NCBI GenBank assembly: GCA_017442155.1
Contig: JAFSAU010000005.1
Span: 1-45,918 of the forward strand
Length of the DNA stretch: 45,918 bases
Reading direction: 5' to 3'
Source: Clostridia bacterium
GTDB taxonomy: Bacteria; Bacillota; Clostridia; UMGS1883; UMGS1540
The notes under the pieces were generated by a model, which was given only the letters and a program-made list of their open reading frames with translations, was not told where the DNA came from and made no database searches. Below are positions 25,687-45,918 of this stretch, in pieces (position 1 is the first letter of the stretch; each line of letters starts with the position of its first letter). The translations under genes and the position numbers were made by a program.

Positions 25687-28245
25687 TTAGTTCATGGACA
25701 GAATTCTGTCCATAATAACCGCGGCTTCGGCACGGGTTGTGTTCCCCGTAGGATTCAACGTGCCGTCTGCGTTACCCTTGATAAGGCCGGAGGAAATCAT
25801 GGCCTTTACATGCGCAAGTGCATAGTCGGCAACAAGGCCGCTGTCAGAAAATACGGTCATATCCGCTTCACCGGCAAGATTCATGCCACGGGAAATAATT
25901 GTCATCAAATCCTGACGTGTGATTTCGGCTTCCGGATTATAGAGATTCTCTCCAATACCGTTTAAGATTCCCGCCGCACGTCCGATAGCGATTTCCTTCG
26001 CATATTCGGCGTTCGGGTCTACATCGCTGAAGTTTTCGGTCGCATCACCGGTAAGCCCCAGCGTGCGCACCAGGAACATGGCAAATTCGCCTCTTGTTAT
26101 TTTGGTCTGGGGCGAGAAGATACGCGGGTTTCCGCCATCATTTACAATCCCCAGAGAATCCAGTTTTTCGATGGAATCCTTGGCCCAGATGATTTCGTTC
26201 AGGTCACGAAAGCGACTGCGGAGACGAAGACCCGAAAGGTCTACACTCTCATCAGGCGTGATGGTATATACAGCGGCCTGCTTTGCACCGAGAGATACTG
26301 TGACCGCATTGTTTTCACCTCTGTACGTTTCCTGCGCGCCCCAAAGACCGTTTACCGCGGCATTGCCCAGCGCGATTTTCCCGTCTGTCGAGACAAGCGG
26401 AACTGTAACCTCTTTCGCCGCATCTGTTCGGTTTACAATAACAGCATACAAAATGCCGTCTTTGACATAAACCGTATATGCCTCATCCTCTGTCACCTTT
26501 TCGCAAAGGGACGGATATTCATTATGCACAAAGTGGGAAAATGCTTGCGTAAGCTCACCACTTTCGTTCATTGCCACAAGGTCTGAAAGTAGCGTGCCTA
26601 ATTCTACCTTGAAGAAATATTCAATACCGTACATACCCGTTCCTACTGCCCCTTCAAAAAAGGCATCGTAGAATTGGAAGCGGTAAGTATCAATCGTATC
26701 GCGTCCTTCGGTGAAGGTCGGCAACAGCGTATAGACAGGTCTATCAAAGTTATGCAGCTCCTGTATTGCTTTTGTATTCTGTCCGTAGCTTTTCTTATAG
26801 GCATCAATCAAAAATACATCACTGTAGCGAGAAATGCCTTCAAGATTCTGACATTCACAGATGTACACAGGATGATGCTTATCCAGTTCGCGAATGTTCA
26901 GATATGCGGCTATAAGCTCATTATCCCGGTTTTGCGTCGGGTCGTCGGTGGCATAAATCTGCTGGAACGGCTCATCCATGACTGCCCATGCAAATACTGC
27001 CGGATGGTCTTTATAAGTGGTGACGATTTCCCGCGTAAGCGGAATAATTTCAGGATTTCCCGCAGAGGTCATATCGGGATACAGACATACAAGACCCATA
27101 AGTCCGTATTGCTGCAGAAGGTCAAGCTGAACACCAACCTTTGCAGGGTCTGTCCCTGCCGCCATCTGCACGACATTTGCGCCCACGCTTTTTGCCTCTT
27201 CCAGATAATGCTTCCCGCCCTTGGATGCCGCAGACATGCCTGCATGATACGCAAACACAGGGTCCAAAATCTCGCCGCTGTCCAGAACATAAAGCCCTTC
27301 TTCATTTAGCGTAGTGGGCGGGTCAAATTTATAAATTCGCTGTACAAATTCGTAGGTTTTTCCGTCACCATCGGTCAAGGCTGCACAGAATTTATATTCT
27401 TTTTCTTTCTCTGCGAGTAAGGAGAAATCAAAGCTTGCACTTACGGTTTCCCCTGTAAACGGAAGTGCTTCTGTCTTTTGCAAAACAGTTTCGCCGTCCA
27501 CAATAGAAAATACGACTGTGGCATTTTCCATATTGACGTGGTTTGTGCTGATTACAAGGTTAGAGCGGGTAAGCGTTCCCTCGATGTCCCCCGTGTGCCC
27601 TGTTTCATAGAAAATATTATTGGTAAAGAAGGTTGCGGGCTTTGCGATGGATTCGCTGATTTGCGTGAGGGATACATCGTCAAAATAAGCTATGCCCTTC
27701 TTATACATGCGGACATATACAACAACACCTACGGCAAGATCGGGTGCAATGGTGTCAACCGTATACTGCTTCCATTCTCCACCGGTATTTCCAAGTCCGT
27801 TACCGGACTTATTGCCGCCGGGGTTTTCGCCGGCAAAAAGCGTATCGGTCTGCCATTCAAACTTAAAGCCTGCACCTTCCTTAACGTCAGAATCGCACCA
27901 CACCCAGTAGGAAAGACGATAATAAGCACCGGGAATCATGCCATCGGGAATATAAAAGCGTACCCAGTCCTTTTTCCCGGCGGTGTTATCCACCTTTATG
28001 GAATAGCTACCTGTGTGTGCTTGTTCTGTGGACCATGTGATAAAATCTGCACTCTGGCTCCAGTCCTCTTCGGTTCCCTGCCCATACGGTGTCCATCCTG
28101 CCGCGCCGTTTCCGGCGGCATTGGGGGTTTCAAAGCTTGTATTTCCCAGAAGCTCCACCCCCAAGCCTTGCGGCTCTGCCTGTGCGGAAAAGCACGGAAC
28201 GAGCATGAAAAGACTTAGTAGCACAGTAATAATTTTTTTGGTCAT
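25687..28245 (-). CDS. Secreted SLH protein with CBM-like module and TIM-barrel-like domain (protein A)
   Basis: An 852-residue surface protein. A signal peptide of about 23 residues (M-T-K-K start, A-Q-A end) is followed by a CBM4/9-like beta-sandwich (30-195, L-L-G-N-T-S-F-E) and an Ig-like domain (205-310). A TIM-barrel-like domain (315-575) has H-P-A-V-F-A-W-A-V-M-D-E-P (D424, E425). A small beta domain and three SLH repeats (677-850, each with T-R-G-E, T-R-Q-D or T-R-A-E) complete it. SLH repeats anchor proteins to pyruvylated wall polymers. At the presumed seventh strand, L-L-P-T has Pro509 where clan GH-A enzymes carry the nucleophile Glu. It may be a glycosidase with altered chemistry or a binding protein. 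The ATG has AAGGAG upstream. Confidence 0.75.
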   Translation of the reverse strand: MTKKIITVLLSLFMLVPCFSAQAEPQGLGVELLGNTSFETPNAAGNGAAGWTPYGQGTEEDWSQSADFITWSTEQAHTGSYSIKVDNTAGKKDWVRFYIPDGMIPGAYYRLSYWVWCDSDVKEGAGFKFEWQTDTLFAGENPGGNKSGNGLGNTGGEWKQYTVDTIAPDLAVGVVVYVRMYKKGIAYFDDVSLTQISESIAKPATFFTNNIFYETGHTGDIEGTLTRSNLVISTNHVNMENATVVFSIVDGETVLQKTEALPFTGETVSASFDFSLLAEKEKEYKFCAALTDGDGKTYEFVQRIYKFDPPTTLNEEGLYVLDSGEILDPVFAYHAGMSAASKGGKHYLEEAKSVGANVVQMAAGTDPAKVGVQLDLLQQYGLMGLVCLYPDMTSAGNPEIIPLTREIVTTYKDHPAVFAWAVMDEPFQQIYATDDPTQNRDNELIAAYLNIRELDKHHPVYICECQNLEGISRYSDVFLIDAYKKSYGQNTKAIQELHNFDRPVYTLLPTFTEGRDTIDTYRFQFYDAFFEGAVGTGMYGIEYFFKVELGTLLSDLVAMNESGELTQAFSHFVHNEYPSLCEKVTEDEAYTVYVKDGILYAVIVNRTDAAKEVTVPLVSTDGKIALGNAAVNGLWGAQETYRGENNAVTVSLGAKQAAVYTITPDESVDLSGLRLRSRFRDLNEIIWAKDSIEKLDSLGIVNDGGNPRIFSPQTKITRGEFAMFLVRTLGLTGDATENFSDVDPNAEYAKEIAIGRAAGILNGIGENLYNPEAEITRQDLMTIISRGMNLAGEADMTVFSDSGLVADYALAHVKAMISSGLIKGNADGTLNPTGNTTRAEAAVIMDRILSMN
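25703..26242 (-). repeat. 540 bp SLH-coding tract, copy 1
   Basis: This tract, coding the SLH repeats of protein A, is nearly identical and without indels to 28462-29001 in protein B; by eye well over 90 percent of bases match. The rest of the two genes is clearly more diverged, which suggests gene conversion or a recent duplication of the anchor region. Confidence 0.85.
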
Positions 28246-28272
28246 TGTTTTTCTCCTTTTTGATGAAAGCAG

Positions 28273-28320
28273 ACAATCCCTCCGTCGCTTCGCGGCCCCT
28301 CCGCATGCACAAGGGAGGCT
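28273..28320. repeat. Partial copy of an ACAATCCCTCCGTC repeat element
   Basis: The stretch opens with ACAATCCCTCCGTC, has a short GC-rich middle and closes with CACAAGGGAGGCT, matching the outer parts of the element at 38315-38475. It lies in the 196 bp between proteins A and B. A similar short element is common in intergenic regions of several Oscillospiraceae-type genomes (from memory). Confidence 0.65.
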
Positions 28321-28381
28321 TTTTTGTGCCCTTCGGTTTTTACAAAAAGACGTCTGCTTTGCAATATTTGATTTAGTTTAG

Positions 28382-28418
28382 AAAAAGGCTGCCGCAGCAT
28401 ATGTTGTCCGCGACAGCC
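28382..28418 (-). terminator. Terminator of the protein B gene
   Basis: On the minus strand GGCTGTCGC pairs with GCGGCAGCC across a 14 nt loop, followed by TTTTTC. It lies 24 bp past the protein B stop, so proteins A and B are probably separate transcripts. Confidence 0.75.
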
Positions 28419-28441
28419 TCTCCTTCATTTTCCCTCTTTTT

Positions 28442-31400
28442 TCAGACCGTCTGGCTATAGATTCTATCCATAATAACCGCGGCTTCGGCACGGGTTGTGT
28501 TCCCCGTGGGATTCAGCGTGCCGTCTGCGTTACCCTTGATAAGACCGGAGGAAATCATGGCCTTTACATGAGCCAGCGCATAGTCGGCAACAAGGCCGCT
28601 GTCAGAAAATACGGTCATATCCGCTTCACCGGCAAGATTCATGCCACGAGAAATAATGGTCATCATATCCTGACGAGTGATTTCGGCTTCCGGATTATAG
28701 AGATTCTCTCCGACACCGTTTAAGATGCCCGCCGCACGTCCTATGGCAATTTCCTTTGCATACTCTGCATCGGGAGCTACATCGCTGAAGTTTTCGGTCG
28801 CATCACCGGTAAGCCCCAGCGTACGCACCAGGAACATGGCAAATTCGCCTCTTGATATTTTGGTCTGGGGCGAGAAGATGCGCGGGTTTCCGCCATCATT
28901 TACAATACCCAGAGAATCCAGCTTTTCAATAGAATCCTTCGCCCAGGTGATTTCATTCAGGTCGCGGAAGCGGCTACGGAGGCGAAGTGCGCTAAAGTCT
29001 ACCGCGGCATCGGGTGTTATTTCATAGACTGCCGCGCGTTCTGCTTCAAGCTTTATAGAAACGGCGCCATTTGCGGCGCGGTACGATTCAGAAGCACCGT
29101 AAAGTCCTTTTACCGTCGCATCACTAATCACAGTTTTCCCATCGGCACTTACGAGCGGTACTGTAATTTCCTTCGCTTCCGTGTTGCGGTTTGCCACAAC
29201 GGCATATACCTTGCCTTCTTTTACGTATACTGCATAAGCCTCATCGGCTGCAACCTTTTCGGAGAGCGTCTGATACTTATTGTGCACAAAATATGCATAC
29301 GCATCTGCAAGCTCGCCCGACTGATTCATTTCGATAAGTGCATCCTTCATCGGGAAGAGGTAGGAGAAGTTCTCATCGTAGAAGTACTCCATAGCGTAAA
29401 CACCTGTGCTGAGTGCGCCTTCAAAGAAGCCATCATACATATCAAAGCGATAGGTGTCAATATTATCCCGTTGTGAATAGGCGGGCAAAAGCGTGTAAAC
29501 CGGTCTTGTGAAGTTAAATTGTTCGTTAATCATCTTCGTATTCTGTCCGTAGCTCTTTTTATACGCGTCAATGAGAAATACGTCACAGTAACGGGAAGAA
29601 TCTTCAAGTCCCTTACATTCACAGATATAAACCGGTTTAACCTTATCAATTGCCCGAATGGTCAGATATGCATCAATCAGCTCATTATCACGATTTTCCG
29701 CCTGATTCATGCCTTCCGGTGCAAGCAGCTGCTGATTCGGCTCGTCCATGACAGCCCATGCAAAGACGGCCGGATGATCCATAACTGCTTTGACGGTTTC
29801 TTTAACATACTCAATGTTTGCCGGATTACCTGCGGATGTCATGCTGGGGTACAGGGAAACAAGTGCTTTAACGCCTTTTTCCTGCAGAGTATCGAGCTGC
29901 TCGAGTACCTTGCCCGTGTTTTTTACGGCTGTAATCTGCATAACATTCATGCCCATGGCAATAGCATCATCCAGATAATTTACACGGTTCGGGACGTTAC
30001 GAAGCTCACCTACGTGGTAAGCAAATGCGGGGTCAAACACCTCCCCGTTTTCGTCGATATAAAGACCATCCTCCCGGATTGCGGTAGGTCTGTCAAACTT
30101 ATAAACGCGCTGCGAAAATTCATATGTTTTTCCTGCGCCGTCCGTCAAGGTTGCCACAATGCGGTATTCCTTTTCCTTTTCCGCCATGAGCGTAATGGGG
30201 AAGCCGTAGGACATTTTGTCTTCTACAAAGGGGATGGGTTCGCTTTGTGCCAGAACAGCATCACCGTCACGGAAAGAATAGGTAACGGTTGCACCATCCA
30301 TCGGAATATTATTCGTTTCAATAATCAGGGGTGCTTTTTTGATGGAAATTTCCACATCGCCCTCATAGCCTGTTTCAAAGAAGATGTTGTTTGTCATACT
30401 GGTTGCAGGCTTTGCACTGGAAGCACTGACGCGGTAAAGGGATGCATCGTCAATATAGGCAACACCCGGAATGTAGAGACGGATATAGGTTACAACACCT
30501 GCAACGGTATCCGGTGACAGGGACGTAGTAGAAAAACGTCTCCACTCGCCGTTTGTGTTGCCGAGACCGTTACCGAAGCTGTTGCCTGCCGGTTCTTCGC
30601 CGTCCAATGCATCATTTACAATCCATTCGAATTTAAAGCCAACACCATCCGAAATTTCGGATTCGCAGTATGCCCAGAAGGAAAGCTGATAGTACGCACC
30701 CGGTAACATACCGTCATTTACCTGGAAGCGAATCCAGTCCTTCTTCCCTGCCGTGTTATCAATTTTTACGGAATATTCACCGGTATGTGCTCTTTCGTTT
30801 GTCCAGGTAACATATTCAGAGGATGCAGACCAGTCTGCCTCTTCCCCCAGTCCGTACGGCGTCCAGCCTGCGGCACCGTTTCCGGCGGCATTCGGGGTTT
30901 CAAAGCTTGTGTTCCCGAGAAGCTCTGTACAGGTTTCGTCGTACGGCTCTTTAAATTCAATAGGAAGCTCGTAGATTTCACCGGTGATGGAATAATCATC
31001 CACCGTTACCTTGCCTTCCACCTTTTGCGTACGAACAAAGGTCACGTAAGAGCCGCTCATAGGTGCGGTAAATTCGAGGGTGGTTTCCTTCCATTCTTTC
31101 GTGCCCAAATCATCCACGAAAATATAAACTGCGTCTTCACCCGTAAATTCCACCTTGAAGCAAATCTTCATGCCCTCGGAAGCATCCTTTGTAAAAATGC
31201 TGAACTTATATCTTGCACCGGCCACGAAGTTTACTCTCTGATTTAAGAGTGAAATGTAATCTCTTTCTTTGCCGCCCGTGGAATCGAGAATGACGGCATT
31301 ATTGCCGCTGTGGGCATCGTTTGTGATGCTGCAGTGCTGTGCTGTGCTGTTTTTCCAGCCTGAGGGCAGACCATCCTCGCCCAGTTTTTCAAATCCACCG

Positions 31401-31996
31401 TTCATGGTGATTTCTCCGGTTTTTCCGGTTGCTACCTTCGTATCGTATACAACCGGCTCGGGTGCATCCACCCCGCGCTCTTCGGTCATCTGGCCGGTGA
31501 GCAGAGCATTATCGTAGGCCACATCGCCGCTGTTTTTACGGCTTCTGAGATATACCGCCACGGTTGTGGCATCTTCCGGTGCCGTGAAGGTATGCTCACA
31601 TCTTTTCCACCTACTCTTTTCTGCGGTAATATCGATTTTTTCATTTTTAATATTCCCGCCTTCGTTTTTCCAGATTACGTAGAAAAACGGTTCGGCAGAG
31701 CGTTCTGTGCGGACATCTGCGGAGAGAACATACTCCGTTCCACCGACGAGTCCGTTCACCGTCTGGGTGATATAGCCGGTTCCGGCAATGAAAATAGCTT
31801 TTTCGCCTTCGGACACTTTGTCCGTGATAATACTTACATTTGCACCGCTTGTGGTCCATTTGTACAGTCCCACCTCGGTACGGGTCATGTTTTCAAAGCT
31901 CCCGTTTAAAAGGAGGTTTTCTGCCGCCTGCACGGGTACTAAACATGAGACAAACAGGAGCAGACATAAGGATAGTGTTAAAAGTTTTTTGTACAT
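28442..31996 (-). CDS. Secreted SLH protein with three CBM-like modules and TIM-barrel-like domain (protein B)
   Basis: An 1184-residue surface protein, essentially protein A with two more CBM-like modules in front. Order: signal peptide (1-24), CBM-like modules at about 25-170, 190-340 and 357-530, an Ig-like domain to 635, barrel-like domain to about 890, beta domain, and three SLH repeats from about 1005. The third CBM-like module copies that of protein A (L-L-G-N-T-S-F-E-T-P-N-A-A-G-N-G). The barrel has A-W-A-V-M-D-E-P (D751, E752) and Pro838 at the presumed nucleophile site. The ATG at 31996 has AAGGAG 8 nt upstream; an in-frame TTG nine codons earlier is not needed. Its substrate is unknown. 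Confidence 0.75.
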   Translation of the reverse strand: MYKKLLTLSLCLLLFVSCLVPVQAAENLLLNGSFENMTRTEVGLYKWTTSGANVSIITDKVSEGEKAIFIAGTGYITQTVNGLVGGTEYVLSADVRTERSAEPFFYVIWKNEGGNIKNEKIDITAEKSRWKRCEHTFTAPEDATTVAVYLRSRKNSGDVAYDNALLTGQMTEERGVDAPEPVVYDTKVATGKTGEITMNGGFEKLGEDGLPSGWKNSTAQHCSITNDAHSGNNAVILDSTGGKERDYISLLNQRVNFVAGARYKFSIFTKDASEGMKICFKVEFTGEDAVYIFVDDLGTKEWKETTLEFTAPMSGSYVTFVRTQKVEGKVTVDDYSITGEIYELPIEFKEPYDETCTELLGNTSFETPNAAGNGAAGWTPYGLGEEADWSASSEYVTWTNERAHTGEYSVKIDNTAGKKDWIRFQVNDGMLPGAYYQLSFWAYCESEISDGVGFKFEWIVNDALDGEEPAGNSFGNGLGNTNGEWRRFSTTSLSPDTVAGVVTYIRLYIPGVAYIDDASLYRVSASSAKPATSMTNNIFFETGYEGDVEISIKKAPLIIETNNIPMDGATVTYSFRDGDAVLAQSEPIPFVEDKMSYGFPITLMAEKEKEYRIVATLTDGAGKTYEFSQRVYKFDRPTAIREDGLYIDENGEVFDPAFAYHVGELRNVPNRVNYLDDAIAMGMNVMQITAVKNTGKVLEQLDTLQEKGVKALVSLYPSMTSAGNPANIEYVKETVKAVMDHPAVFAWAVMDEPNQQLLAPEGMNQAENRDNELIDAYLTIRAIDKVKPVYICECKGLEDSSRYCDVFLIDAYKKSYGQNTKMINEQFNFTRPVYTLLPAYSQRDNIDTYRFDMYDGFFEGALSTGVYAMEYFYDENFSYLFPMKDALIEMNQSGELADAYAYFVHNKYQTLSEKVAADEAYAVYVKEGKVYAVVANRNTEAKEITVPLVSADGKTVISDATVKGLYGASESYRAANGAVSIKLEAERAAVYEITPDAAVDFSALRLRSRFRDLNEITWAKDSIEKLDSLGIVNDGGNPRIFSPQTKISRGEFAMFLVRTLGLTGDATENFSDVAPDAEYAKEIAIGRAAGILNGVGENLYNPEAEITRQDMMTIISRGMNLAGEADMTVFSDSGLVADYALAHVKAMISSGLIKGNADGTLNPTGNTTRAEAAVIMDRIYSQTV
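28462..29001 (-). repeat. 540 bp SLH-coding tract, copy 2
   Basis: Second copy of the tract at 25703-26242, at a constant offset of 2759 bp with no gaps. Confidence 0.85.
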
Positions 31997-32025
31997 GTTG
32001 TTTCTCCTTTTTTTGTTTTGCAAAA

Positions 32026-32096: not shown

Positions 32097-33593
32097 TTAT
32101 GCGACCGGCGCGACAAGCATTTCCGCAGGAAATGCATCAAATTTTTCTAAGGATGCAAGCGATTTGTAAGAGAACACGCGGATGCTGTATTTATCCGCAT
32201 CTGTCTCCGGTATATCAAAGCTTCCCACGTTAATCGTTGTGTATGCCCCCTTTGTCAAGGTTGCAGGTGCAGAAATAATTAAGTCCACAAAGCTCTTGGC
32301 TGTGCCTTCAGCTTTGTAAAGTGCTGCAATAGTAACAACGCCCGGGGCATCCCCTGTATAAGAGGATTGCAGATATGCATCGTAAGAAACTGCAATTGTG
32401 CCTGCGGCATCGCCCTCGCCGTTCGTGTACGTTACTTTGGATTCTGCGGGCAGTAATGAAACATTGTCAAGATATAATGTACCATTTTTGTCGGCAGCCG
32501 TAGCATCCTGGGAATTCTGGAAGCGGATGTCCATGATCGCGGCATTCTGCGGCATCTCCGTGCTCGGTATAAGGAGAGAAAAATGCTTCCATGTATTTTT
32601 CGGTTTTGCATCCTGAGATGTGAAGGATTTTATCCATTCATCACTCCCGTTATAAATCTTTGTCCCATCCTCATCTCTAAAATAAATTACAACATTAAAT
32701 TTGGTATTACCACCGGTTTTAAACCCATCAAAGGTTAAAAGATAATCCGTACCGGAAGCTAAGGGAGAAACGTCCGGCGAAGTAGTAAATGTAATGTTTT
32801 GTCTATTTGCAGGGTTTACAAAGGCAACAACATTGCTCTCCACACCGTCGGCTCCGGCAAATTTCTGAATGGAAATATAGGTGTCGGCATTTCGTTCCCA
32901 TCCGGTTGCAAATCCGTCTGCACCAACCATTTCAAAGTCACCGTTCTGAATTAAATCCTTTTTGGTTTCTGTTACGTCTTCTTCGTTACTGTCGTCTTCT
33001 TTCTCATCTATCGTAATATTGTCAAGATATAATTCAGCTGCACTCTCCGAAGCGGAAACATTCTGGTATGTCTGAAATACGATTTCAAAAATTCGTGTTG
33101 TTTCCGGTAGGTCGGTAACATTGAATTCAAAATGCTGCCAGGCATCCTTGTTGGTAGGCTGCACTGATTGTTCCGCAAAATACAGGTCTGCGTTTAATTC
33201 ATCCTTTATCTTATCGCCTTCATCATCCCTATAGAAAATGTTGATATTGAATCTGGATGCACCGGCCGTTCTGTAAGCATCAAACGAAAGGACATACGCC
33301 TTTGCAGGGTCAACCGGAGAAGATTCCAAATCTGTCCTGAATTTAATATTTTCCGAGTCTGCCGGTTTTACAAATGCAACAACCTTGTTGTCGGCATTTC
33401 CGCTTGCATCCTTTACGGTTTTAACTAAAACAATTGCAGAATTGCTACGCTCCCATCCTGTTGCAAACCCATCTTCACCAACCAATTCAAAATCGCCGTT
33501 TTGAATCAGATTCTGTCCCGCAGCGGATGCGCCCACTGCCGGAAGCATTGTGAGTGCCAAAAGCACTGCTAAGATTGCCGATAATTTTTTCAT
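32097..33593 (-). CDS. Secreted protein with two tandem CBM-like modules and a small C-terminal domain
   Basis: A 498-residue secreted protein with a clear signal peptide (M-K-K-L-S-A-I-L-A-V-L-L-A-L, ending A-S-A-A). Two tandem repeats of about 180 residues start with I-Q-N-G-D-F-E-L and I-Q-N-G-D-F-E-M (at about 29 and 215) and share F-A-T-G-W-E-R and L-Y-L-D-N; both resemble CBM4/9 sugar-binding sandwiches. A C-terminal domain of about 110 residues follows (V-T-I-A-A-L-Y-K-A-E-G, ending F-S-Y-K-S-L-A-S-L-E). It has no barrel and no SLH repeats, so it is a binding or accessory protein. The signal peptide and ribosome binding region match those of the next gene upstream, pointing to duplication. 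Confidence 0.75.
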   Translation of the reverse strand: MKKLSAILAVLLALTMLPAVGASAAGQNLIQNGDFELVGEDGFATGWERSNSAIVLVKTVKDASGNADNKVVAFVKPADSENIKFRTDLESSPVDPAKAYVLSFDAYRTAGASRFNINIFYRDDEGDKIKDELNADLYFAEQSVQPTNKDAWQHFEFNVTDLPETTRIFEIVFQTYQNVSASESAAELYLDNITIDEKEDDSNEEDVTETKKDLIQNGDFEMVGADGFATGWERNADTYISIQKFAGADGVESNVVAFVNPANRQNITFTTSPDVSPLASGTDYLLTFDGFKTGGNTKFNVVIYFRDEDGTKIYNGSDEWIKSFTSQDAKPKNTWKHFSLLIPSTEMPQNAAIMDIRFQNSQDATAADKNGTLYLDNVSLLPAESKVTYTNGEGDAAGTIAVSYDAYLQSSYTGDAPGVVTIAALYKAEGTAKSFVDLIISAPATLTKGAYTTINVGSFDIPETDADKYSIRVFSYKSLASLEKFDAFPAEMLVAPVA

Positions 33594-33767: not shown

Positions 33768-34658
33768 TTACCGAAATACTTCGCGAACCGGGAATTCCTC
33801 ATACGGGGCATACGCATTTTCAAAATCAAGCGAAAATACTTTCAGTATATACGTCGCGTTATCCGCAGGCTTTTCAAAGCTACCTAAAGTGACTTCTGCG
33901 AAATCCGCTTTTATAAGCTGTGTCGCCGGAGAAACAATTACTTTTGCAAGCGTATTGGAAACGCCATCTGTTTTGTAGAGTGCTGCAACTCCGACAATAC
34001 TCGGTGCATCCCCTTCATACGAAGACGGACAATATGCATTATACCCTACGGTGATTGCACCTGTTTCTTCGACGTTGTAGGTAACTTCGGAAATAACTTT
34101 GCTAAGATATATATCATCAAAATACAATGTCTTACCTGCAGAGCCTTTTTTTGTGGCATTAAGCAATATTTTAACTCTTACTGTGCCTTGGGGTATTGTA
34201 ACAACGTAATCGTCAACCACAGAAGAACTCGAAGAATTTAAGCGGACCTTGAACTCCGTCCATGTATTTGTCTTGGTCATGTTCTCCGTGTACGATTTAT
34301 CACCGAGCATTTCACCAGCAGTATCATAAAAATAAAATTGCATTTTTCCAGCATGTGACGATGCGTCAGTCCAATACCAAAGTGAAAAATTGTAATCTGA
34401 ATTTCCTTCAATAGCAATGTCCTGCGTAACCCACTTATCAAGTGCCGTGCCACCTATAAATGAAAGTGCTTTTCCTCCTTCATCATGCGAGAAACTTTCG
34501 CTGATGGCCGCTTTCGCCGTACCTGTATAGCTCCAACCATCAAATCCATCCGTAAAACTTGGATTTGCAACTAAGTTCACACCATTTGCGCTTACGCCCG
34601 CCACCGGGAGCATTGTAAGTGCCAGAAGCACTGCCAGGATTACCGATACTTTTTTCAT
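33768..34658 (-). CDS. Secreted protein with one CBM-like module and a small C-terminal domain
   Basis: A 296-residue paralogue of the 498-residue neighbour with a single sugar-binding-like sandwich (about 28-185, N-L-V-A-N-P-S-F-T-D-G-F-D-G-W). The same type of C-terminal domain follows (V-G-V-A-A-L-Y-K-T-D-G, ending L-K-V-F-S-L-D). Signal peptide M-K-K-V-S-V-I-L-A-V-L-L-A-L-T-M-L-P is almost the same as in the neighbour. It has GAAAGGTAG upstream of the ATG. It has no catalytic motif and no wall anchor. The 174 bp between it and the next gene downstream holds no terminator or promoter I can support. Confidence 0.75.
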   Translation of the reverse strand: MKKVSVILAVLLALTMLPVAGVSANGVNLVANPSFTDGFDGWSYTGTAKAAISESFSHDEGGKALSFIGGTALDKWVTQDIAIEGNSDYNFSLWYWTDASSHAGKMQFYFYDTAGEMLGDKSYTENMTKTNTWTEFKVRLNSSSSSVVDDYVVTIPQGTVRVKILLNATKKGSAGKTLYFDDIYLSKVISEVTYNVEETGAITVGYNAYCPSSYEGDAPSIVGVAALYKTDGVSNTLAKVIVSPATQLIKADFAEVTLGSFEKPADNATYILKVFSLDFENAYAPYEEFPVREVFR

Positions 34659-34690: not shown

Positions 34691-34709
34691 AAAACCGTTT
34701 TACGGTTTT
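34691..34709 (-). terminator. Small hairpin after protein C
   Basis: AAAACCG (34691-34697) and CGGTTTT (34703-34709) with a 5 nt loop, starting in the stop codon of protein C. The stem is short with T's at its 3' end, so it is a weak terminator at best. Confidence 0.4.
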
Positions 34710-37274: not shown

Positions 37275-38243
37275 ATGGCTGAACGCAATCTGTTACAACC
37301 TAAGCGACTGTTTTCAATAAGCAAATTCGTTTCGGCATATTATTTTGAATTTCTGCCGAATGAATCTTATACAAGTGACCGTATTCGTTCCTATGATTTC
37401 TACTCCGTCTTTTTCGTTGCACGCGGCGAACGCTATATTTGTGTTAATGGGGTTCATTATCATCTTTTTGACGGTGACATGATGCTGATTGCCCCACATA
37501 CACCCCATCAAATTCTACAGAGCGACAACTTTATTTCTAACGATTTTTGTTTCTATACCTTTACTTCAAAATCACCGAAGTTAAACAAACTGAAGAACAG
37601 GGTTTTCTCGCTGAACAATAAAGAGCGTTCACTGTTCCTGAACGCCATTTTCAGTATTATTCCCAGGATTATTCACATACGGGATGTACCTAATCTTTAC
37701 GGCTTTAGACTTAGCGAGGATGTCTCGCCGGATGTTCTGTCTCTTTCGGTACAGTACATGGAGCTTTTACTCACAACTCTTTATCTTGATAGGTATAATC
37801 TTCTTTCCGCCTCTCCGCTTCTGAATGTCAGTGCTACCTCTCAGGATACACCGGTTGACACGGACCTTACTGCACGCATAAAACAATTTCTTCTTGAAAA
37901 TATAGATAAGAAAATTTCGCTTACAGACGTGACGAGGCACATGTGCATGTCGCTCTCCGGTTTAGAAAAGAACTTCAAGAAAGATACGGGCTACAGTATC
38001 ATTGAATACCTGAATGTTCTGCGCCTCAACCGTATTAAAAATCTCATCTTATATACGGACCAGAATCTGACCGAAATTGCAAAGCAAACGGGCTTTTCGA
38101 ACATTCAGTATTTTTCGAAATTCTTTAAAACACATACGGGATTTTCTCCCAGTGAATATGCAAAGCAAAGGGTGAAATCATCCCTGCATTCAGGGCGAAC
38201 ACTGAAGCTGGCAAATCCGAAGAACAGGACCAACCAAAATTAA
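37275..38243 (+). CDS. AraC-family regulator embedded in the secreted-protein array
   Basis: A 322-residue regulator with an N-terminal cupin-type sensor (V-A-R-G-E-R-Y-I-C-V-N-G-V-H-Y-H-L-F-D-G-D) and, after a mostly helical linker, an AraC DNA-binding domain from about residue 205. That domain shows I-S-L-T-D-V-T-R-H-M-C-M-S-L-S-G-L-E and ends F-S-P-S-E-Y-A-K. The ATG at 37275 has AAGGAGG 13 nt upstream, a rather long spacing. It is the only plus-strand gene among eight minus-strand secreted-protein genes, divergent from protein C and followed by a strong terminator, so it is the natural candidate to control the array. Confidence 0.87.
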   Translation: MAERNLLQPKRLFSISKFVSAYYFEFLPNESYTSDRIRSYDFYSVFFVARGERYICVNGVHYHLFDGDMMLIAPHTPHQILQSDNFISNDFCFYTFTSKSPKLNKLKNRVFSLNNKERSLFLNAIFSIIPRIIHIRDVPNLYGFRLSEDVSPDVLSLSVQYMELLLTTLYLDRYNLLSASPLLNVSATSQDTPVDTDLTARIKQFLLENIDKKISLTDVTRHMCMSLSGLEKNFKKDTGYSIIEYLNVLRLNRIKNLILYTDQNLTEIAKQTGFSNIQYFSKFFKTHTGFSPSEYAKQRVKSSLHSGRTLKLANPKNRTNQN

Positions 38244-38293: not shown

Positions 38294-38314
38294 ATTATCT
38301 ACGCACCTATCGGT

Positions 38315-38475: not shown

Positions 38476-38509
38476 GATGGCTGCCGCATTTGCGGCGGTA
38501 GTCATGTCT

Positions 38510-41500
38510 TTATCGCGGGCGAAGCATTTCATCCCACCCGAATACACGAACGGTTTCATTGCCGGACAGCACCACCGCGCTGTTCTCCGGATAAAAAGTG
38601 ATGAGCTCCGGTGTGTCTCCGTAAAAAACATATTTTCCGGCCACACCTCCGCGCACTGTATACGTCATTCCGGGCTGGGGCACAAACACACGCTTATCCC
38701 CAAGATACAACCCTGCCGAAGAGCTTTCCGACCAGCTCAGCACCCGGTCTGCCAGCACTGCCGCATCGGCGCGACTTAACGTTTCCCCGGCAGAGATGCC
38801 GCCGCGGCTCTGAGCCGCCGCAAATGAAGCCTCTATATCTGCAAGTGCCTCCTGCAGCGTTTCTCCCGTAAACTGAGAGGAAAGCGCATCCGTGCAAAGG
38901 GCGATTGCAGCTGCAAGCGTGAGCGGTCCGTCTGTCACGTTCTGCATTTCCGTTTCTGTAACCGCAGAAAGAAGCTCCGCCATTTCTGCCTTTGTGAAGA
39001 AATCCTCCGGCGCAAATTCCCACCGGCTTTTTCCTTCTATCAGGCCGAGCCCGGCAAGACGTGCTATCTGCTGTCTCGCCCAGCCATACTCCCGTAAATC
39101 CTCAAAGGATGAACGATAAAGCGATGAGAAATTCATCGTTTGCTTTGGTGTGATTTTGAAAAGCACTGCTTCGACACCGTTTACGGTCAGGTTCAAGCTT
39201 TCACTACCCTTCAGGGTCTGCGCTGTCCTCCCCGCTATCACTTCGGCTGAATATTCTCCTATGCATATATCGCCTGCAAAGCTTTCCAGGGGAATGGAAA
39301 CCGTCTTGCTCTGTCCCTCCTTCAGACCCAGAACAATCATATACACACTGCCGCTGGACACCCATCCGGCATACCAATAGTCCGAATATTTCGCCTCGCA
39401 AAATGCCGGAGACTTATCGAAAACAAAATGGTCATATGCAAGCTCCAGCTCCTTTTCGCCAAAGGTGCAGAGCGCATTCCAGAGTGCACCGCCGTCGCGG
39501 GCGTTCCAGATTGGGACCTCACTTTTCCCTGTAGCCGGGTTTACATCCGAGTCGCTTATAGTATAGTACCCCACCGCTGCAGCACCGGAAAGAAGAGCCT
39601 GCCAGTTATTGTTTCGTCCGTCATCTGCAAGGGGCCATCTTCCGTGGGTTGTATAGTAGGTTTCCAGAAGCGAATACACCGGCTTTTTATATCCCACTGC
39701 TTTTCTGGCAAGCTCCGTGGATTTCGAGGCATTTTGTCCTTCGGCAGAGCTGTAGGGGTCGATGCAGAGAATATCCACATATTTTCCTGTTTCTGCGTAA
39801 TAATTACTTACCGCTTCCATTGCCATAACCGGATGCTTTTCATCCAGCATACGCAGGAGACGGAAGGAATTTTCCAAATCCTGCTGGGGGCTATTCAGTC
39901 CCAGAAACACCTCGTCCATTACCCCGTACCCAAACAACGCAGGATGGTTTCTGACGCGTTCATCCCCTACAATTCCGATGGTTCTTTCGATGTTTTCATG
40001 GCTTCCGGCCGGGGTCATACCATAATATAGAGCGATAAATCCCATAATGCCGGCCTCCTGCGCCTTATCGAGCGCGGCAAGAGCCTGCTCCGCCGTATTA
40101 AAGGCCCCCATCTGTACAACGTTTACACCGCTTTCAGCGGTTTTGGCGTAATGTCCCGTATTTACATGATAAGCATACACCGGGAAAAGCGGCTCCGTCC
40201 CGTTTTTCCGGTACACACCGTCCTTGCCGAGATACGTCGGCCGGTTGTATTTAAAAATCTGCTGTACTTTTTTCTCCATCACCGTACCATCTGTATTATA
40301 CAGCGTAGCCACTGCGACATAGGTTTTTTCTTTTACCTCCAGATGCGACAGCGGAAACGTAGCCGAAGCCTTTCCTGCCTCGCTCACAATTCCCTTTTTC
40401 TCCCATTTTACGGTATTCCCGTCAAGAATAGAAAAATCAACCTTAGCCGAAGAAAGATCCGGGAAATATTGAAGATTTACAGAGGAGGAAAGCTTGCCCT
40501 CGGTTTCATCCGTGTAAAAGAAAACGGAGCCGGTGTCAAATTCCAGCGGAGAAGGCGGATTTGTCATGCGAATTTTAACATTATCTATGTATCCCTCGGC
40601 ATTCACGGTTTCCGAGCTTTGCAGAAGCCTTGCAAGCACACTGGCTTCCCGTGCATTGGCCGGGGGATAAATTTTTTCCGAATAAAAATGCCATTTCCCA
40701 TCTGATTTCCCGCCGCTGAAATGCTTCCCTCCACAGCTGACTGCGCCGGGAAGCGAACGGTCCGTATAGTATTCCAGCTTAATGCAGGCATCACCGCCGG
40801 TGGCCTTATACCAGAAGCTAAGCTCATATTCCGCGCCGCCTACGAGGTTCTGCATCTGGGAATAAAACGGGTGCTTCAAGCCATTTCCGGCGGGTACAGA
40901 AATCCGGATGCAGTCGCTGCCGTCATGCGAAGCATTTTCTGCTACGGAAGCATACGGCGCGTGGGCGGCAGACCGTCCCCAGCCGGAAAAGCTTGTGCCG
41001 TTTGTCGATTCCAGAGCACCATTTGTCAGAATATTATCCGGCTGCCCTGCCACGGTGGATCCATCGCCGGATCCGGAGTAGCTGACCGCAAGGCTTTCGC
41101 GCAGGGCGGCCTCCTGCTTCAGCGTATCCCGGAACTCTACGGCAGTCTGTATGGTTTGCGGTGCTTTTCCTGCAAGGCACGCGCTGTCCACATGAAATTC
41201 AGCCTCCCCGTCCAGGCGAATGATAAACAGCACCCGCGTGGTTTCCGCTACTACTTTAAAGCTGTATTCCACTTTTGTCCACTCCGTGTCGAGTACAATG
41301 GACTGATAATAATAGTTTTTTACTGTGATATGGGTTGTGCCGGACGGCTTCTGACAATCCACATATAGCATTGGATTTGCCGTGCCGGACACTTTACGCA
41401 TAAAAGCTGAGAAGGTATAGGTTTCCCCGGGTACGAGGGTGGAAAATCTCTGCGTTAAATAAATTCTTCCACCCTCTTTTCCGGAAATGACGGCAAAATT

Positions 41501-41773
41501 CTCTCCATCCTTCGCATCCCCGCTTGCCGTCAGAAAAAAAGCACCTTCCTTTTTGATTTGATGAGAGGGTTCCCATCCGACAGGCACGCCGGACTCATCC
41601 ACAAGCTCCATGTCCCCGTTCAAAAGAAGGTTATATACGCCGTCCCCCAATTTCGACGGGTAAGCCTCCCGGTTTTCGGTGGGCAATGCCTCCGTATACG
41701 CGGCCTGCACAAGGGCCGGAAAAAGCATACTGAGCAGAAGAGCGCACAGCACAAGTGCTATTTTTCGTTTCAT
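38510..41773 (-). CDS. Secreted protein with CBM-like modules, TIM-barrel-like domain and decayed SLH region (protein D)
   Basis: A 1087-residue protein. Signal peptide to about residue 25 (A-L-V-Q-A-A), CBM-like modules at about 45-205 (L-L-N-G-D-M-E) and 245-405, Ig-like domain to 510, barrel-like domain to about 790 with H-P-A-L-F-G-Y-G-V-M-D-E-V (D620, E621) and P-V-Y-S-L-L-E-T (E704). These two Glu sit where clan GH-A acid/base and nucleophile are expected. The end (884-1015) is SLH-like in its first part (F-T-K-A-E-M-A), then degenerate, and is followed by a unique 60-residue tail. The ATG at 41773 has GGAGG 8 nt upstream. It is a close relative of protein E. Confidence 0.75.
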   Translation of the reverse strand: MKRKIALVLCALLLSMLFPALVQAAYTEALPTENREAYPSKLGDGVYNLLLNGDMELVDESGVPVGWEPSHQIKKEGAFFLTASGDAKDGENFAVISGKEGGRIYLTQRFSTLVPGETYTFSAFMRKVSGTANPMLYVDCQKPSGTTHITVKNYYYQSIVLDTEWTKVEYSFKVVAETTRVLFIIRLDGEAEFHVDSACLAGKAPQTIQTAVEFRDTLKQEAALRESLAVSYSGSGDGSTVAGQPDNILTNGALESTNGTSFSGWGRSAAHAPYASVAENASHDGSDCIRISVPAGNGLKHPFYSQMQNLVGGAEYELSFWYKATGGDACIKLEYYTDRSLPGAVSCGGKHFSGGKSDGKWHFYSEKIYPPANAREASVLARLLQSSETVNAEGYIDNVKIRMTNPPSPLEFDTGSVFFYTDETEGKLSSSVNLQYFPDLSSAKVDFSILDGNTVKWEKKGIVSEAGKASATFPLSHLEVKEKTYVAVATLYNTDGTVMEKKVQQIFKYNRPTYLGKDGVYRKNGTEPLFPVYAYHVNTGHYAKTAESGVNVVQMGAFNTAEQALAALDKAQEAGIMGFIALYYGMTPAGSHENIERTIGIVGDERVRNHPALFGYGVMDEVFLGLNSPQQDLENSFRLLRMLDEKHPVMAMEAVSNYYAETGKYVDILCIDPYSSAEGQNASKSTELARKAVGYKKPVYSLLETYYTTHGRWPLADDGRNNNWQALLSGAAAVGYYTISDSDVNPATGKSEVPIWNARDGGALWNALCTFGEKELELAYDHFVFDKSPAFCEAKYSDYWYAGWVSSGSVYMIVLGLKEGQSKTVSIPLESFAGDICIGEYSAEVIAGRTAQTLKGSESLNLTVNGVEAVLFKITPKQTMNFSSLYRSSFEDLREYGWARQQIARLAGLGLIEGKSRWEFAPEDFFTKAEMAELLSAVTETEMQNVTDGPLTLAAAIALCTDALSSQFTGETLQEALADIEASFAAAQSRGGISAGETLSRADAAVLADRVLSWSESSSAGLYLGDKRVFVPQPGMTYTVRGGVAGKYVFYGDTPELITFYPENSAVVLSGNETVRVFGWDEMLRPR

Positions 41774-41871
41774 TCTTAATTCCTCCATTTCTGAAGCCGC
41801 ACGGACGGAAACGCACACGATTTTATCGCCCGGAGCAGAGTGTCACCACCTGCCCGGCATTTTCATTTTCT

Positions 41872-44800
41872 CTACCCTAAGATTCTGTCCATAATGACAG
41901 CCGCTTCCGCGCGCGTTGTATTCCCGAGGGGGTTGATCGTTCCGTCTGCGTTTCCCCGAATCAATCCGGAAGCCACCATTGCGCTCACATGAGCTGCGGC
42001 ATAACTGGCAATCAGACCGCTATCACTGAAGGACGAAAGGTCGGCCATACCGGAAAGCTGCATTCCCCGGGAAATCATAGTCATCAGATCCTGACGGGTG
42101 ATATTGGCATCCGGGTTATACATATTGTCACCGATGCCGTTAATAATCCCTGCCGCCTTGCCCTGCGCCAGTTCCCTGGCGTAAGGATGGGTGGCGGGCA
42201 CATCTGCAAAGTTTTCGCCGGCCGCATTCGTAAGACCCAAAGTACGGACGAGGAAGGCCGCAAGCTCGGCACGGGTTACATTCTCGCCGGGGGCATATTC
42301 CCACTCGCTTCTGCCGTCCACAATATCGAGACTATCAAGCCGCGCAATCTGTTGCCGTGCCCAGGAATGATTTTCTAAATCCTCAAATGCAGTTGCACTA
42401 AGTTTTGAAAAATCAACGGTTTCCGAAGGCAATATTTTGAATAAAACAGCTTCTACACCGTTTACCGTCATATCCAGCGTTCCATTGCCGACAATGGGCG
42501 TTTTATCTGCCCGACCGGCAATTATCTCAGCTGTATATGCACCGATTTTAATGTCACCTGCAAAGCTCTGAAGCGGAATGGATACCGGCAGACTTTGTCC
42601 CTCTTTTCTTCCGAGAACAACCATATAAACACTGCCATCCTGCACCCAGGAAGAATACCAGTAGTCACTTCCGCGATACTCTGCGAAATCAGGTGTCAGA
42701 TTCTGCACAAAATGTCCATAAACCAAATCTTTTTCCACCGTGCCAAAGGTATAAAGCTCATTCCAGAGTGCGCCGCCGTCCCGGGCATCCCAGATTGCAA
42801 CGTCCTCCCCGTTTGCACCCACATCCGAATCCGAAATGGAATAATATCCCACAGCGGTAGCCCCGGAAATCAATGCCTGATAATTATTATTTCGTCCGTC
42901 ATCGGGAAGGGGCCAACGGCCATGGGTTGTATAATAGACTTCCAGAAGTGCGTAGACAGGTTTTTCGTAATTCACTGCTGCCCTTGCCGCATCACTACGT
43001 ACGGATGCACTTCCCACTTCTGCAGAGCTATAAGGGTCAATACAGAGAATATCCACATATTTTGCGGCCCAGCTATAATAATTTTCCATGGCTTCCATGG
43101 TCATAATGGGTCTGTTTTTATCCAGAGAGCGAATCAGACGGTAGGAATTTTCCATCACCTCATAAGGATTAGAAAGCTGCAGGAAAACCTCATCCATAAC
43201 GCCGTAGCCGAAAAGAGCCGGGTGATTCTGTACCCTGGGGTCACGCAGAATATCAATTGTACGATCGATATTCGTTTCATCTCCGGCCGGTTTCATGCCA
43301 TAATACAAAGCGATAAAGCCCATAATGCCGGCTTCCTGCGCAGCATCCAGTCTTTCCACCGCCTGGTCAGCGTTAGAGAAGGAACCCATCTGCACGAGAT
43401 TGATTCCGGCAGTGGCGGCCTTTTTAAAATGCTCGGGCCGGACATGATAGGCATAGACCGGATAAAAAGGCTCTGTCCCATTTTTCATATATACACCGTC
43501 AGCACCAAGCCAGGCCGGACGCGGATACTTAAATATATTCTGGGTCTGTACATCGGCAACACGTCCGTCAGGATAATATACGGTTGCTTCCAGGCAATAG
43601 GGGTGTTCTGTTTTCGTAAGGTTTGCAAGGTCAAAGGAAACAGAAGCCTTTCCTTCCACCGCCTGCACAGTGCCGCTTTCCCAGATTTTTGCATCCATGT
43701 CATAAAGGCAAAAATCCACATTCGCATGAGAAAGCTCCGGGAAGAAGGGCAGATTCAAGTTCGCAGTAAAGGTGCCGCTTTGCATATCTTCATAGTAGAA
43801 AATCTGGTTTGTGTCCAGCTTCATGGCAGAGGGTGGCATCGTCATGCAAACTGCAATATCGTCCAGATAAACTAAGGCATCTTCTTCCCCGCTTTGCAAG
43901 AGACGCGCCAGTACTGTCATTTCCGCTGCATTTTCTGCGGGATAAAACTTGATACTTGCTTCGTGCCACTGTCCGTCATAAATATAATTTTCGGCACGGG
44001 CATGAAGACTACCGGTAGAGCCTGCACCGGGGAGGCTTCTGTCGGACCAGTATTCCAGCTTTACAACCGGCACCGCACTGCTTCCCGCAGTGATTTTATA
44101 GCGATAAGAAACCTGATATTCTGCACCGCCCGTGATTTTTACATCCTGCGAATAATAGGGATTTTTAAGTCCATCCTCTTTTCCTATGGAGAAGCGAAGT
44201 GCATCACTGCCGCCGTGCCCTTCGCCTTTTGCAAGGCTTCCAAATGCGGAAAACTTGTCTAAAAGCGACCAATCTTCCGGCACAGTGCCATTATTCGCTT
44301 CAAAGCTGCCGTTTTTTAGAATGTTTTCGGGCTGACCGGAGGCAGGCGCATCCTTTACGTACTTTTCACCAAAGGTCTTTTCTACCCGCCGGCTTGCCGC
44401 TTTTTCCGCTGCAAGCTTTGCACGGAATTCTATGCCGAAAGCCATGTCTGCATCCACAGAGCCAGTGCACTGCACATTATCCCAATGCATTTCCCCGCCA
44501 CCGATTAAACGAAGCATGAAAATCAGACGGGTGGTTTCTGGCGGAACTGTGAATGCATGGGTTACATGCTTCCATTTTCCTTCCTCTGTTTCCAGCTGAA
44601 CCTTCACCGTTTCAATGGTTTCATGGGAAGAGCCGGACGGCTTCTGACATTGAATGTTCAGCGAAGCATACCCTGCCGTTTCCGGCATTTTTCGGACATC
44701 TGCCGAAAAGGTGTAGGTTTCACCGGCTATAACGCCGGTTACTGTCTGGGCCACATAAACAGAAGAGGTTTCTCCGAAAAACCGCAGAAAATTATTGCCC

Positions 44801-45606
44801 TCTGCCGCATCGGAGGCCGCAGTCATCGCTTCTGAATAGGCAGCACCGCCAAAAAGATTCCAGCCGGTTGGTAATCCCTTGGAAGCAACCGTTTCAAAGC
44901 TTCCGTTTTTCAGAAGATTAAACGTTCCGTTTCCAAGGCTTTTGATTTGGATGTCCTGGGTCGCACTCACCGGTGCCTGCGGATAGGCATCATCTGCCGG
45001 TGCCGTTAACTTTTCTTCAGATTCAGCAGATGACGATACCGAACCAGCTCCGGCCTGGCCCAGAATTTTCACATCGTCCCACCAGCATTCCCCGGACTCA
45101 TGCAGGCGAACAAGAAGAATGACACGTGTGGCGGCGGCGGGGGCAGTGGCTTTATAGGAAACGGTTTCCCATACGCCCGAGCGGGACGGCTTAAAAGCAG
45201 CACTGTGATTGTCCAGTGTTTCAAAAGAGCCTTTTCCGTCCGGCTTCTGCCAGGTCAGTTTAATGGAGGGACCACTCTGAAAAGAACCTTTTCCTTTCAG
45301 ACTTGCCGTAAATTCATATTCCGTTCCGCCCACAACGTTCCCCACGTTGGAAACATACATATTCGTTCCCGTGTGGGTGAAATGGACGGCATTTTTTCCC
45401 TCTTTGGCACCCTCGGTGGCAATTTCAAAACCGTTCCCCACCGTGGCACCGGAAAGTCCCCATCCGTTCGGCTTTCCCTCCGTCACTTCCTCAAAACCAC
45501 CGTTTTTCAGAATGTTTCCTTTTTCCGCCAAGGCGGGCATGGCACATGTCATCAGAACCATTGCCATCAGCAGAATAATGGACAGTAATTTTTTTGTTGT
45601 CTGCAA
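41872..45606 (-). CDS. Secreted SLH protein with three CBM-like modules and TIM-barrel-like domain (protein E)
   Basis: A 1244-residue surface protein, the largest in the window. Signal peptide to about 27 (A-L-A). CBM-like modules lie at 30-185 (L-K-N-G-G-F-E), 228-385 (L-K-N-G-S-F-E-T) and 428-590 (L-K-N-G-S-F-E-A). An Ig-like domain runs to 690. The barrel-like domain to about 970 has G-Y-G-V-M-D-E-V (D805, E806) and P-V-Y-A-L-L-E-V (E889), the two Glu expected of a retaining clan GH-A glycosidase. Three SLH repeats cover 1072-1244. It starts at TTG 45606, with AAGGGAG upstream and a good promoter. Protein D lies 98 bp downstream with no clear terminator between them. Confidence 0.77.
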   Translation of the reverse strand: MQTTKKLLSIILLMAMVLMTCAMPALAEKGNILKNGGFEEVTEGKPNGWGLSGATVGNGFEIATEGAKEGKNAVHFTHTGTNMYVSNVGNVVGGTEYEFTASLKGKGSFQSGPSIKLTWQKPDGKGSFETLDNHSAAFKPSRSGVWETVSYKATAPAAATRVILLVRLHESGECWWDDVKILGQAGAGSVSSSAESEEKLTAPADDAYPQAPVSATQDIQIKSLGNGTFNLLKNGSFETVASKGLPTGWNLFGGAAYSEAMTAASDAAEGNNFLRFFGETSSVYVAQTVTGVIAGETYTFSADVRKMPETAGYASLNIQCQKPSGSSHETIETVKVQLETEEGKWKHVTHAFTVPPETTRLIFMLRLIGGGEMHWDNVQCTGSVDADMAFGIEFRAKLAAEKAASRRVEKTFGEKYVKDAPASGQPENILKNGSFEANNGTVPEDWSLLDKFSAFGSLAKGEGHGGSDALRFSIGKEDGLKNPYYSQDVKITGGAEYQVSYRYKITAGSSAVPVVKLEYWSDRSLPGAGSTGSLHARAENYIYDGQWHEASIKFYPAENAAEMTVLARLLQSGEEDALVYLDDIAVCMTMPPSAMKLDTNQIFYYEDMQSGTFTANLNLPFFPELSHANVDFCLYDMDAKIWESGTVQAVEGKASVSFDLANLTKTEHPYCLEATVYYPDGRVADVQTQNIFKYPRPAWLGADGVYMKNGTEPFYPVYAYHVRPEHFKKAATAGINLVQMGSFSNADQAVERLDAAQEAGIMGFIALYYGMKPAGDETNIDRTIDILRDPRVQNHPALFGYGVMDEVFLQLSNPYEVMENSYRLIRSLDKNRPIMTMEAMENYYSWAAKYVDILCIDPYSSAEVGSASVRSDAARAAVNYEKPVYALLEVYYTTHGRWPLPDDGRNNNYQALISGATAVGYYSISDSDVGANGEDVAIWDARDGGALWNELYTFGTVEKDLVYGHFVQNLTPDFAEYRGSDYWYSSWVQDGSVYMVVLGRKEGQSLPVSIPLQSFAGDIKIGAYTAEIIAGRADKTPIVGNGTLDMTVNGVEAVLFKILPSETVDFSKLSATAFEDLENHSWARQQIARLDSLDIVDGRSEWEYAPGENVTRAELAAFLVRTLGLTNAAGENFADVPATHPYARELAQGKAAGIINGIGDNMYNPDANITRQDLMTMISRGMQLSGMADLSSFSDSGLIASYAAAHVSAMVASGLIRGNADGTINPLGNTTRAEAAVIMDRILG

Positions 45607-45641
45607 AAGAATCGCTCCCTTCCATATTGCTTTTCTCTACA

Positions 45642-45670
45642 AGTATACAACAAAAAAAGTGTATTGGCAA
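45642..45670 (-). promoter_or_regulatory. Promoter of protein E (and perhaps D)
   Basis: Minus strand TTGCCA (45665-45670), 17 bp, TATACT (45642-45647), 36 bp before the TTG start. Confidence 0.75.
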
Positions 45671-45720
45671 CAGAAAAATACTCCATTTTTGGTATAATTA
45701 CAGTTTTTTAACCATTTATA

Positions 45721-45751
45721 ACTGTGAACACTTCGGAGAAGTGTTCACAGT
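45721..45751 (-). terminator. Hairpin after the rightmost gene
   Basis: ACTGTGAACACTT (45721-45733) and AAGTGTTCACAGT (45739-45751), a perfect 13 bp stem with a CGGAG loop. The T run after it is weak on the minus strand. Confidence 0.65.
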
Positions 45752-45769
45752 ATAAATCAGAATAATAAA

Positions 45770-45918
45770 CTATTGTGTAACAGCCGGAAGTGTTGCCTTC
45801 GCCGCCGCCGGATGCATGGTAGAGGCACCATCCCAGAACATTGCCTTAACAGAATAGGTTACACCGTCCGCAGCTTCCGGAACATTGACAGTGTGGTCCA
45901 GCATAACGGGACGGTAGC
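45770..45918 (-). CDS. C-terminal fragment of a secreted protein (cut by window edge)
   Basis: Read from the raw sequence: 48 codons entering from the right edge and ending in TAG at 45770-45772. The fragment contains T-Y-S-V-K-A-M-F-W-D-G-A-S-T-M-H-P. It resembles the end of the small C-terminal domain in the two short CBM proteins (Y-S-I-R-V-F-S-Y-K-S-L) and in protein C (L-S-G-F-Y-W-D-K-N-V-L-H-P). It is therefore probably another member of the array, an eighth secreted protein, without SLH repeats at its end. The rest lies outside the window. Confidence 0.65.
   Translation of the reverse strand, partial: YRPVMLDHTVNVPEAADGVTYSVKAMFWDGASTMHPAAAKATLPAVTQ

What the first reader, a model, noticed from the sequence alone, without database searches (positions are those of the whole stretch)
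25687..45918. Array of eight secreted CBM/barrel/SLH proteins: a possible new surface glycan system
Eight consecutive minus-strand genes encode exported proteins built from a limited set of modules: CBM4/9-like sandwiches, Ig-like domain, a TIM-barrel-like domain with an H-P-A-x-F-x-x-x-V-M-D-E motif, SLH repeats and a small shared C-terminal domain. I cannot place the barrel in a named glycosidase family. Five barrel paralogues plus two barrel-less binding proteins side by side suggest a surface complex for one class of glycan.
Basis: partly seen in the sequence, partly recalled or inferred. Interest (0 to 1): 0.85.

Follow-up and report, generated by a model that had tools for sequence, protein, structure and literature searches.

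The report
Giant family of altered glycosidase barrels
One bacterium gives about a tenth of its genome to 74 related proteins, most of them predicted to sit on its surface, whose enzyme-like barrels keep the acid residue of known sugar-cutting relatives in every copy but in most copies lack the partner residue those relatives need, so they likely cut or grip polysaccharides in an unusual way.

The parts
25687..28245 (-). Gene A, 852 aa: predicted signal, CBM_4_9, Ig-like region, barrel (26383-27330), beta domain, 3 SLH; Pro at the strand-7 slot
28442..32023 (-). Gene B, 1193 aa: 3 CBM_4_9, barrel (29141-30103), 3 SLH; Pro at the strand-7 slot; nearest paralogue is A (58% in the barrel)
32097..33593 (-). 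Gene C, 498 aa: CBM-like by iterated HMM (no Pfam CBM above cut-off), C-terminal Ig-like domain, no barrel, no SLH
33768..34658 (-). Gene D, 296 aa: CBM_4_9 and C-terminal domain, no barrel, no SLH
34708..37038 (-). Gene E, 776 aa: CBM_4_9, Ig-like, barrel (35146-36129), no SLH; D437-E438 at 35725-35730, Arg518 in the strand-7 slot at 35485-35487
37275..38243 (+). AraC-family regulator, divergent from E (236 bp gap)
38477..38505 (.). terminator-like hairpin (11 pairs) between the convergent ends of the regulator and F; consensus match only, 30 such sites in the region against 22.4 in shuffles
38510..41818 (-). Gene F, 1102 aa as listed, likely start at 41773: 2 CBM_4_9, Ig-like, barrel (39281-40270), degenerate SLH; D620-E621 at 39911-39916, Glu704 in the strand-7 slot at 39662-39664
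41872..45606 (-). Gene G, 1244 aa: 3 CBM_4_9, Ig-like, barrel (42565-43533), 3 SLH; Glu in the strand-7 slot
24472..25611 (+). Gfo/Idh/MocA oxidoreductase next to A (75 bp, convergent); the same family recurs beside other barrel clusters

Best explanation
The seven genes are two likely units of a 74-copy family of CBM/Ig/TIM-barrel proteins, predicted to be exported and mostly held to the cell wall by SLH domains, whose barrels likely cut polysaccharides at the cell surface with a clan-GH-A-like fold but, in most copies, without that clan's usual nucleophile residue. Shown: the copy number, the domain order, the clustering with AraC regulators and varied glycosidase genes, the invariant Glu after strand 4 preceded by an acidic residue instead of the clan's Asn, the Asp-x-Tyr after strand 6, and Gln or another non-acid at the strand-7 position in most copies. 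Inferred: each cluster is switched on by its AraC protein in response to a glycan; CBM-only proteins and CBM-rich barrel proteins capture the polymer; the strand-4 Glu acts as general acid. In the Gln-type barrels a conserved Asp (D620 or D672 in F numbering) would be general base for a single-displacement, inverting cut; the F/G type, with Glu at both places, could still work by the classical retaining route. How the products enter the cell is unknown.
Against: No activity, expression or localisation data. Binding-only function would also keep a conserved pocket. 10 of 199 barrels lack Asp672. Conserved columns are only modestly enriched at strand ends (6 of the top 20, P 0.04). 82 of 199 rows have an acidic residue at, or from -2 to +3 of, the slot, the 17 slot acids included, so in some a nucleophile could be hidden by a small shift. 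No coordinates were available, so carboxylate distances were not measured. 11 of 37 clusters have no AraC within 6 kb and 11 no CBM-only gene; in G002 and G161 a CBM-only neighbour was seen for 1 of 34 and 1 of 21 barrels (limited flanks). Few transporters lie nearby.
Confidence: 0.5

Rival explanations
1. Most barrels are non-catalytic: a retired glycosidase fold reused as a glycan-binding surface lectin, the Gram-positive counterpart of binding proteins in Bacteroides loci; only the F/G type with two Glu still cuts.
For: 182 of 199 lack a carboxylate in the nucleophile slot, and the slot changes often (Q versus other: 14 changes on the tree); proteins are rich in CBMs; clusters contain recognisable glycosidases that could do the cutting.
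Against: The strand-4 Glu never varies in 199 barrels (mean pairwise identity 32% among the 74 of this genome), and Gln in the slot is shared with all 7 distant relatives and so looks ancestral, not like decay.
Confidence: 0.27
2. The barrels cut N-acetylhexosamine glycans by neighbouring-group help from the substrate, as GH20-type enzymes do, which needs an Asp-Glu pair and a Tyr but no nucleophile.
For: Adjacent acidic pair in 199 of 199 and Tyr in 198 of 199; four genes of one BLASTP group lie by barrel loci, one of them tested and matching GH20 in Pfam. The GH20 residue pattern is recalled, not taken from a call.
Against: No sequence relation to a GH20 of the same genome (hhalign probability 0.25%); neighbouring genes at other loci match GH28, GH2 and GH31, so one sugar type for all is unlikely.
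Confidence: 0.13
3. Ordinary retaining clan GH-A glycosidases whose nucleophile is misplaced by alignment.
For: Clan fold; 15 of 199 have Glu in the slot, F and G among them; 82 of 199 have an acid at or near it (-2 to +3).
Against: 117 of 199 have no acid there; the Asn that the clan keeps before the acid/base is absent in all 199; in BuGH158 loss of that Asn or of either Glu abolished activity (PMC7157763, passages).
Confidence: 0.1

Closest known systems
Clan GH-A glycosidases (GH2, GH42, GH157, GH158, GH164)
   Same: TIM barrel, Glu right after strand 4, Tyr after strand 6
   Different: Asn before the acid/base is Asp/Glu in 199 of 199; the strand-6 N-x-Y seen in the 4 printed PDB alignments that reach it has Asp at the first place in 189 of 199 barrels; Glu at the nucleophile position in only 15 of 199
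Gram-positive polysaccharide utilisation loci (gpPULs) of Roseburia/E. rectale (PMC5320581, passages)
   Same: regulator of AraC type beside glycan-enzyme genes; many loci per genome
   Different: gpPULs by definition include a carbohydrate transporter; few barrel clusters show one nearby, and the genome has 6 PF00528 matches, 1 PF01547 and no PF13347
Bacteroides loci with surface glycosidase plus surface glycan-binding protein, such as the GH158 locus (PMC7157763, abstract start and passages)
   Same: surface enzyme-like barrel next to a binding-type protein
   Different: SLH domains as predicted anchors; one barrel family repeated 74 times; SusC/SusD were not searched for

Membership tests
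Clan GH-A | (beta/alpha)8 barrel of the clan's type | tested here: met
Clan GH-A | Glu after strand 4 as acid/base | tested here: met
   199 of 199; role not tested
Clan GH-A | Asn before the acid/base | tested here: not met
   0 of 199; D 192, E 7; feature taken from PMC7157763
Clan GH-A | Glu after strand 7 as nucleophile | tested here: not met
   15 of 199, F and G among them; Q 135; present in F and G, absent in A, B, E
Clan GH-A | retention of configuration | not testable with these tools
   needs NMR on products
GH2 (Pfam) | barrel above curated cut-off | tested here: inconclusive
   of the five window barrels only E passes, 21.9 against 21 bits; 16 of 58 family members match at E 0.01 or better, how many above the cut-off is not shown
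GH2 (Pfam) | N-terminal sugar-binding domain PF02837 | tested here: not met
   no match at E up to 1 in the seven proteins
GH158 | full-length match with both catalytic Glu | tested here: inconclusive
   best PDB profile hit, E 5.6e-15, but only profile positions 43-175, which stop before the slot
GH164 / GH42 | catalytic Glu pair with Asn beside the acid/base | tested here: not met
   F has the pair but Asp620 in place of Asn; GH164 Glu-160, Glu-297 and Asn-159 from PMC7105311 (passages)
GH20-type substrate assistance | adjacent acidic pair on strand 4 | tested here: met
   199 of 199; the criterion is recalled
GH20-type substrate assistance | sequence relation to GH20 | tested here: not met
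   hhalign probability 0.25% against one GH20 of this genome
gpPUL | transcriptional regulator | tested here: met
   AraC at 37275-38243; AraC within 6 kb of 26 of 37 clusters
gpPUL | carbohydrate transport system in the locus | tested here: not met
   window: no ORF with 4 or more predicted TM segments within 6 kb of the barrels (the far side of G is not in the window); all fetched stretches: 8 such ORFs within 6 kb of 74 barrel genes, of them 2 MFS-type (one under the Pfam cut-off) and 1 ABC permease; a PTS EIIC lies 6.3 kb off
gpPUL | polysaccharide-degrading enzyme | tested here: inconclusive
   known GH genes in several clusters; barrels themselves unproven

The most novel reading that the evidence does not exclude
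A glycosidase family that has left the clan GH-A mechanism: it kept the acid, traded the clan's Asn for Asp and its nucleophile Glu for Gln, cuts by another route, and was amplified more than once in Clostridia until it filled a tenth of one genome as the main surface machinery for many different polysaccharides.
Probability: 0.35. Interest if true: 0.8.

Novelty: new variant of a known kind. Interest (0 to 1): 0.62.

Why it matters
If the Gln-type barrels cut glycans, the clan GH-A fold contains a branch with a different mechanism, and these bacteria carry dozens of enzymes that the family libraries used here do not name. If they only bind, it is a very large case of an enzyme fold turned into surface lectins. 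Either way, a genome that spends 9.7% of its length on one predicted surface family while showing very few classical ABC sugar importers poses a clear question about how it feeds.

Tried and rejected
GH20 relation: hhalign gave no match. C17_318 hit the barrel HMM but is a true GH2 and was dropped, so 74 of 75 ORFs are counted; it is still in the 75-row counts. gpPUL filing: dropped because transporters are missing. A search of genome contigs with the 58-row alignment was not possible; the F/G subset found 4 loci. Protein database searches gave 25, 79 and 16 relatives, each scoring only the roughly 8,000 candidates sharing most words. The 50 rows shown by each VIA search list no GH20, GH18 or GH123, which excludes nothing. 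Papers: the listings (nothing found in 108) showed no description of this family or this genome that I recognised; passages of four papers were read. GH71 (PMC12394665, passages) was considered as an inverting TIM-barrel precedent; no sequence test was made.

Full report
Observation. Open reading frames and Pfam show seven minus-strand genes, A to G, with N-terminal signal-like segments, and an AraC-family regulator on the plus strand between E and F. No long minus-strand ORF lies in 45607-45918. Gaps of 49-196 bp within E-D-C-B-A, 53 bp between G and F, a 236 bp divergent gap between the regulator and E, and a convergent 266 bp gap with a terminator-like hairpin between the regulator and F suggest two units rather than one array. 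That is inference from spacing.

Scale. A whole-genome search with E found many paralogues. In 633,859 bases around them, window included, an HMM finds 75 ORFs, one of which is a true GH2, leaving 74, 235,896 nt, 9.7% of 2.43 Mb. A separate profile search of the whole genome also gives 74 at E 1e-20. The genome is rated 92% complete with 0.09% contamination. At that threshold relatives have 31 and 34 in the same genus, 32 in another genus of the family, 0 in two others; 27 and 2 in two genomes of another family. In a class sample 8 of 391 genomes have a match and in a phylum sample 4 of 398, G000 included in both; there at most 4 candidates a genome were scored, so weak or few copies may be missed. 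On a tree of 197 of 199 barrels, the 34 of G002 need 2 changes and the 21 fetched from G161 need 4, so these look like largely separate amplifications, while G000, G001 and G004 copies interleave. The tree is a quick one with several long branches.

Active site. In 199 barrels (74, 31, 34, 30, 21, 2 from six genomes and 7 distant ones from six more; 2 of 32 G004 hits and 6 of 27 G161 hits were not fetched) the Glu after strand 4 is in 199, the residue before it is Asp in 192 and Glu in 7, Asp667 in 199, Tyr674 in 198, Asp672 in 189. The last residue of strand 7, Glu704 in F and Arg518 in E, is Gln in 135, Glu in 15, Asp in 2, others in 47. All 7 distant relatives have Gln. In clan GH-A the acid/base and nucleophile follow strands 4 and 7 and an Asn precedes the acid/base; in BuGH158 loss of any of the three abolished activity (PMC7157763, passages). 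The printed PDB alignments show N-E in 5 of 5 and N-x-Y in the 4 that reach it, where this family has D-E and D-x-Y. So the fold is the clan's, the acid is kept, the other parts are changed. On the tree, Glu in the slot needs 4 changes and Gln versus other 14. Caveats: 82 of 199 rows have an acid at or from -2 to +3 of the slot, and enrichment of the 20 most conserved columns at strand ends is modest (6 of 20, P 0.04).

Setting. The 74 genes form 37 clusters when same-strand neighbours within 4.5 kb are joined (this joins the two units of the window); 52 of 74 proteins carry SLH; a CBM-only gene lies 5' of or inside 26 of 37; an AraC regulator lies within 6 kb of 26 of 37; 30 of 65 AraC genes lie in this territory against 12.4 expected by length, P 6e-7 under random placement, which operon structure makes optimistic. 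AraC number does not follow the family strictly: G015 and G017, with 0 barrel matches and 2 at E 1e-20 or better, have 53 AraC matches each. Among 48 proteins of the G000 stretches scanned by Pfam (of 406 ORFs picked; 5 of the 48 are barrel, SLH or CBM-only proteins) are GH2, GH20, GH28, GH31, GH106-like, GH5, GH123_N, a BNR-type protein, a GDSL esterase, Gfo/Idh/MocA and xylose-isomerase-like proteins. The variety argues against one glycan. In relatives, neighbouring barrels recur (24 of 31, 28 of 34, 21 of 30, 5 of 21) but the CBM-only neighbour is seen mainly in G001 and G004 (10 of 31, 8 of 30) and rarely in G002 and G161 (1 of 34, 1 of 21, limited flanks and short contigs).

Transport. 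The genome has 6 PF00528 matches, 1 PF01547 and no PF13347. Within 6 kb of barrel genes there are 8 ORFs with 4 or more predicted TM segments (a crude hydropathy count): two MFS-type, one ABC permease beside the genome's only PF01547 match, one EamA, two chromate-type, one cation efflux and one manganese efflux; a PTS EIIC lies 6.3 kb off. The loci therefore mostly miss a defining part of gpPULs (PMC5320581, passages). MFS_1, SSF and PTS were not counted genome-wide.

Verdict. The best-supported account is a lineage-specific surface polysaccharide machinery built on an altered clan-GH-A barrel. Whether the Gln-type barrels cut or only bind is open; invariance of the acid and the ancestral-looking Gln favour cutting by another route, but no distance or assay could be obtained here.

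Noticed in passing
genome G000: Very few classical sugar importers (6 PF00528, 1 PF01547, 0 PF13347 matches) in a genome rich in glycan genes; route of uptake unexplained.
   Followed up: partly
window 20835-24391: FGGY kinase, fucose/arabinose-isomerase-like protein and DeoR regulator just upstream of the array, suggesting a deoxy-sugar or pentose pathway.
   Followed up: no
window 12087-14243: GH106-like (alpha-L-rhamnosidase) gene; relatives of it lie beside other barrel clusters.
   Followed up: partly
L025:1911-4826, L018:1936-4703, L042: Several Glu-slot barrels sit near a Peripla_BP_3-type regulator group and an unassigned 527-615 aa protein group (f6, f8) instead of AraC, a possible second sub-system that may include G-F.
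   Followed up: partly
genome G000: 36 Gfo/Idh/MocA matches (34 over the cut-off), several beside barrel clusters with xylose-isomerase-like partners, as in oxidative glycoside cleavage (partner function recalled).
   Followed up: no
window 15183-16638: SpoVAD and SpoVAC/AEB genes: a likely spore-former.
   Followed up: no
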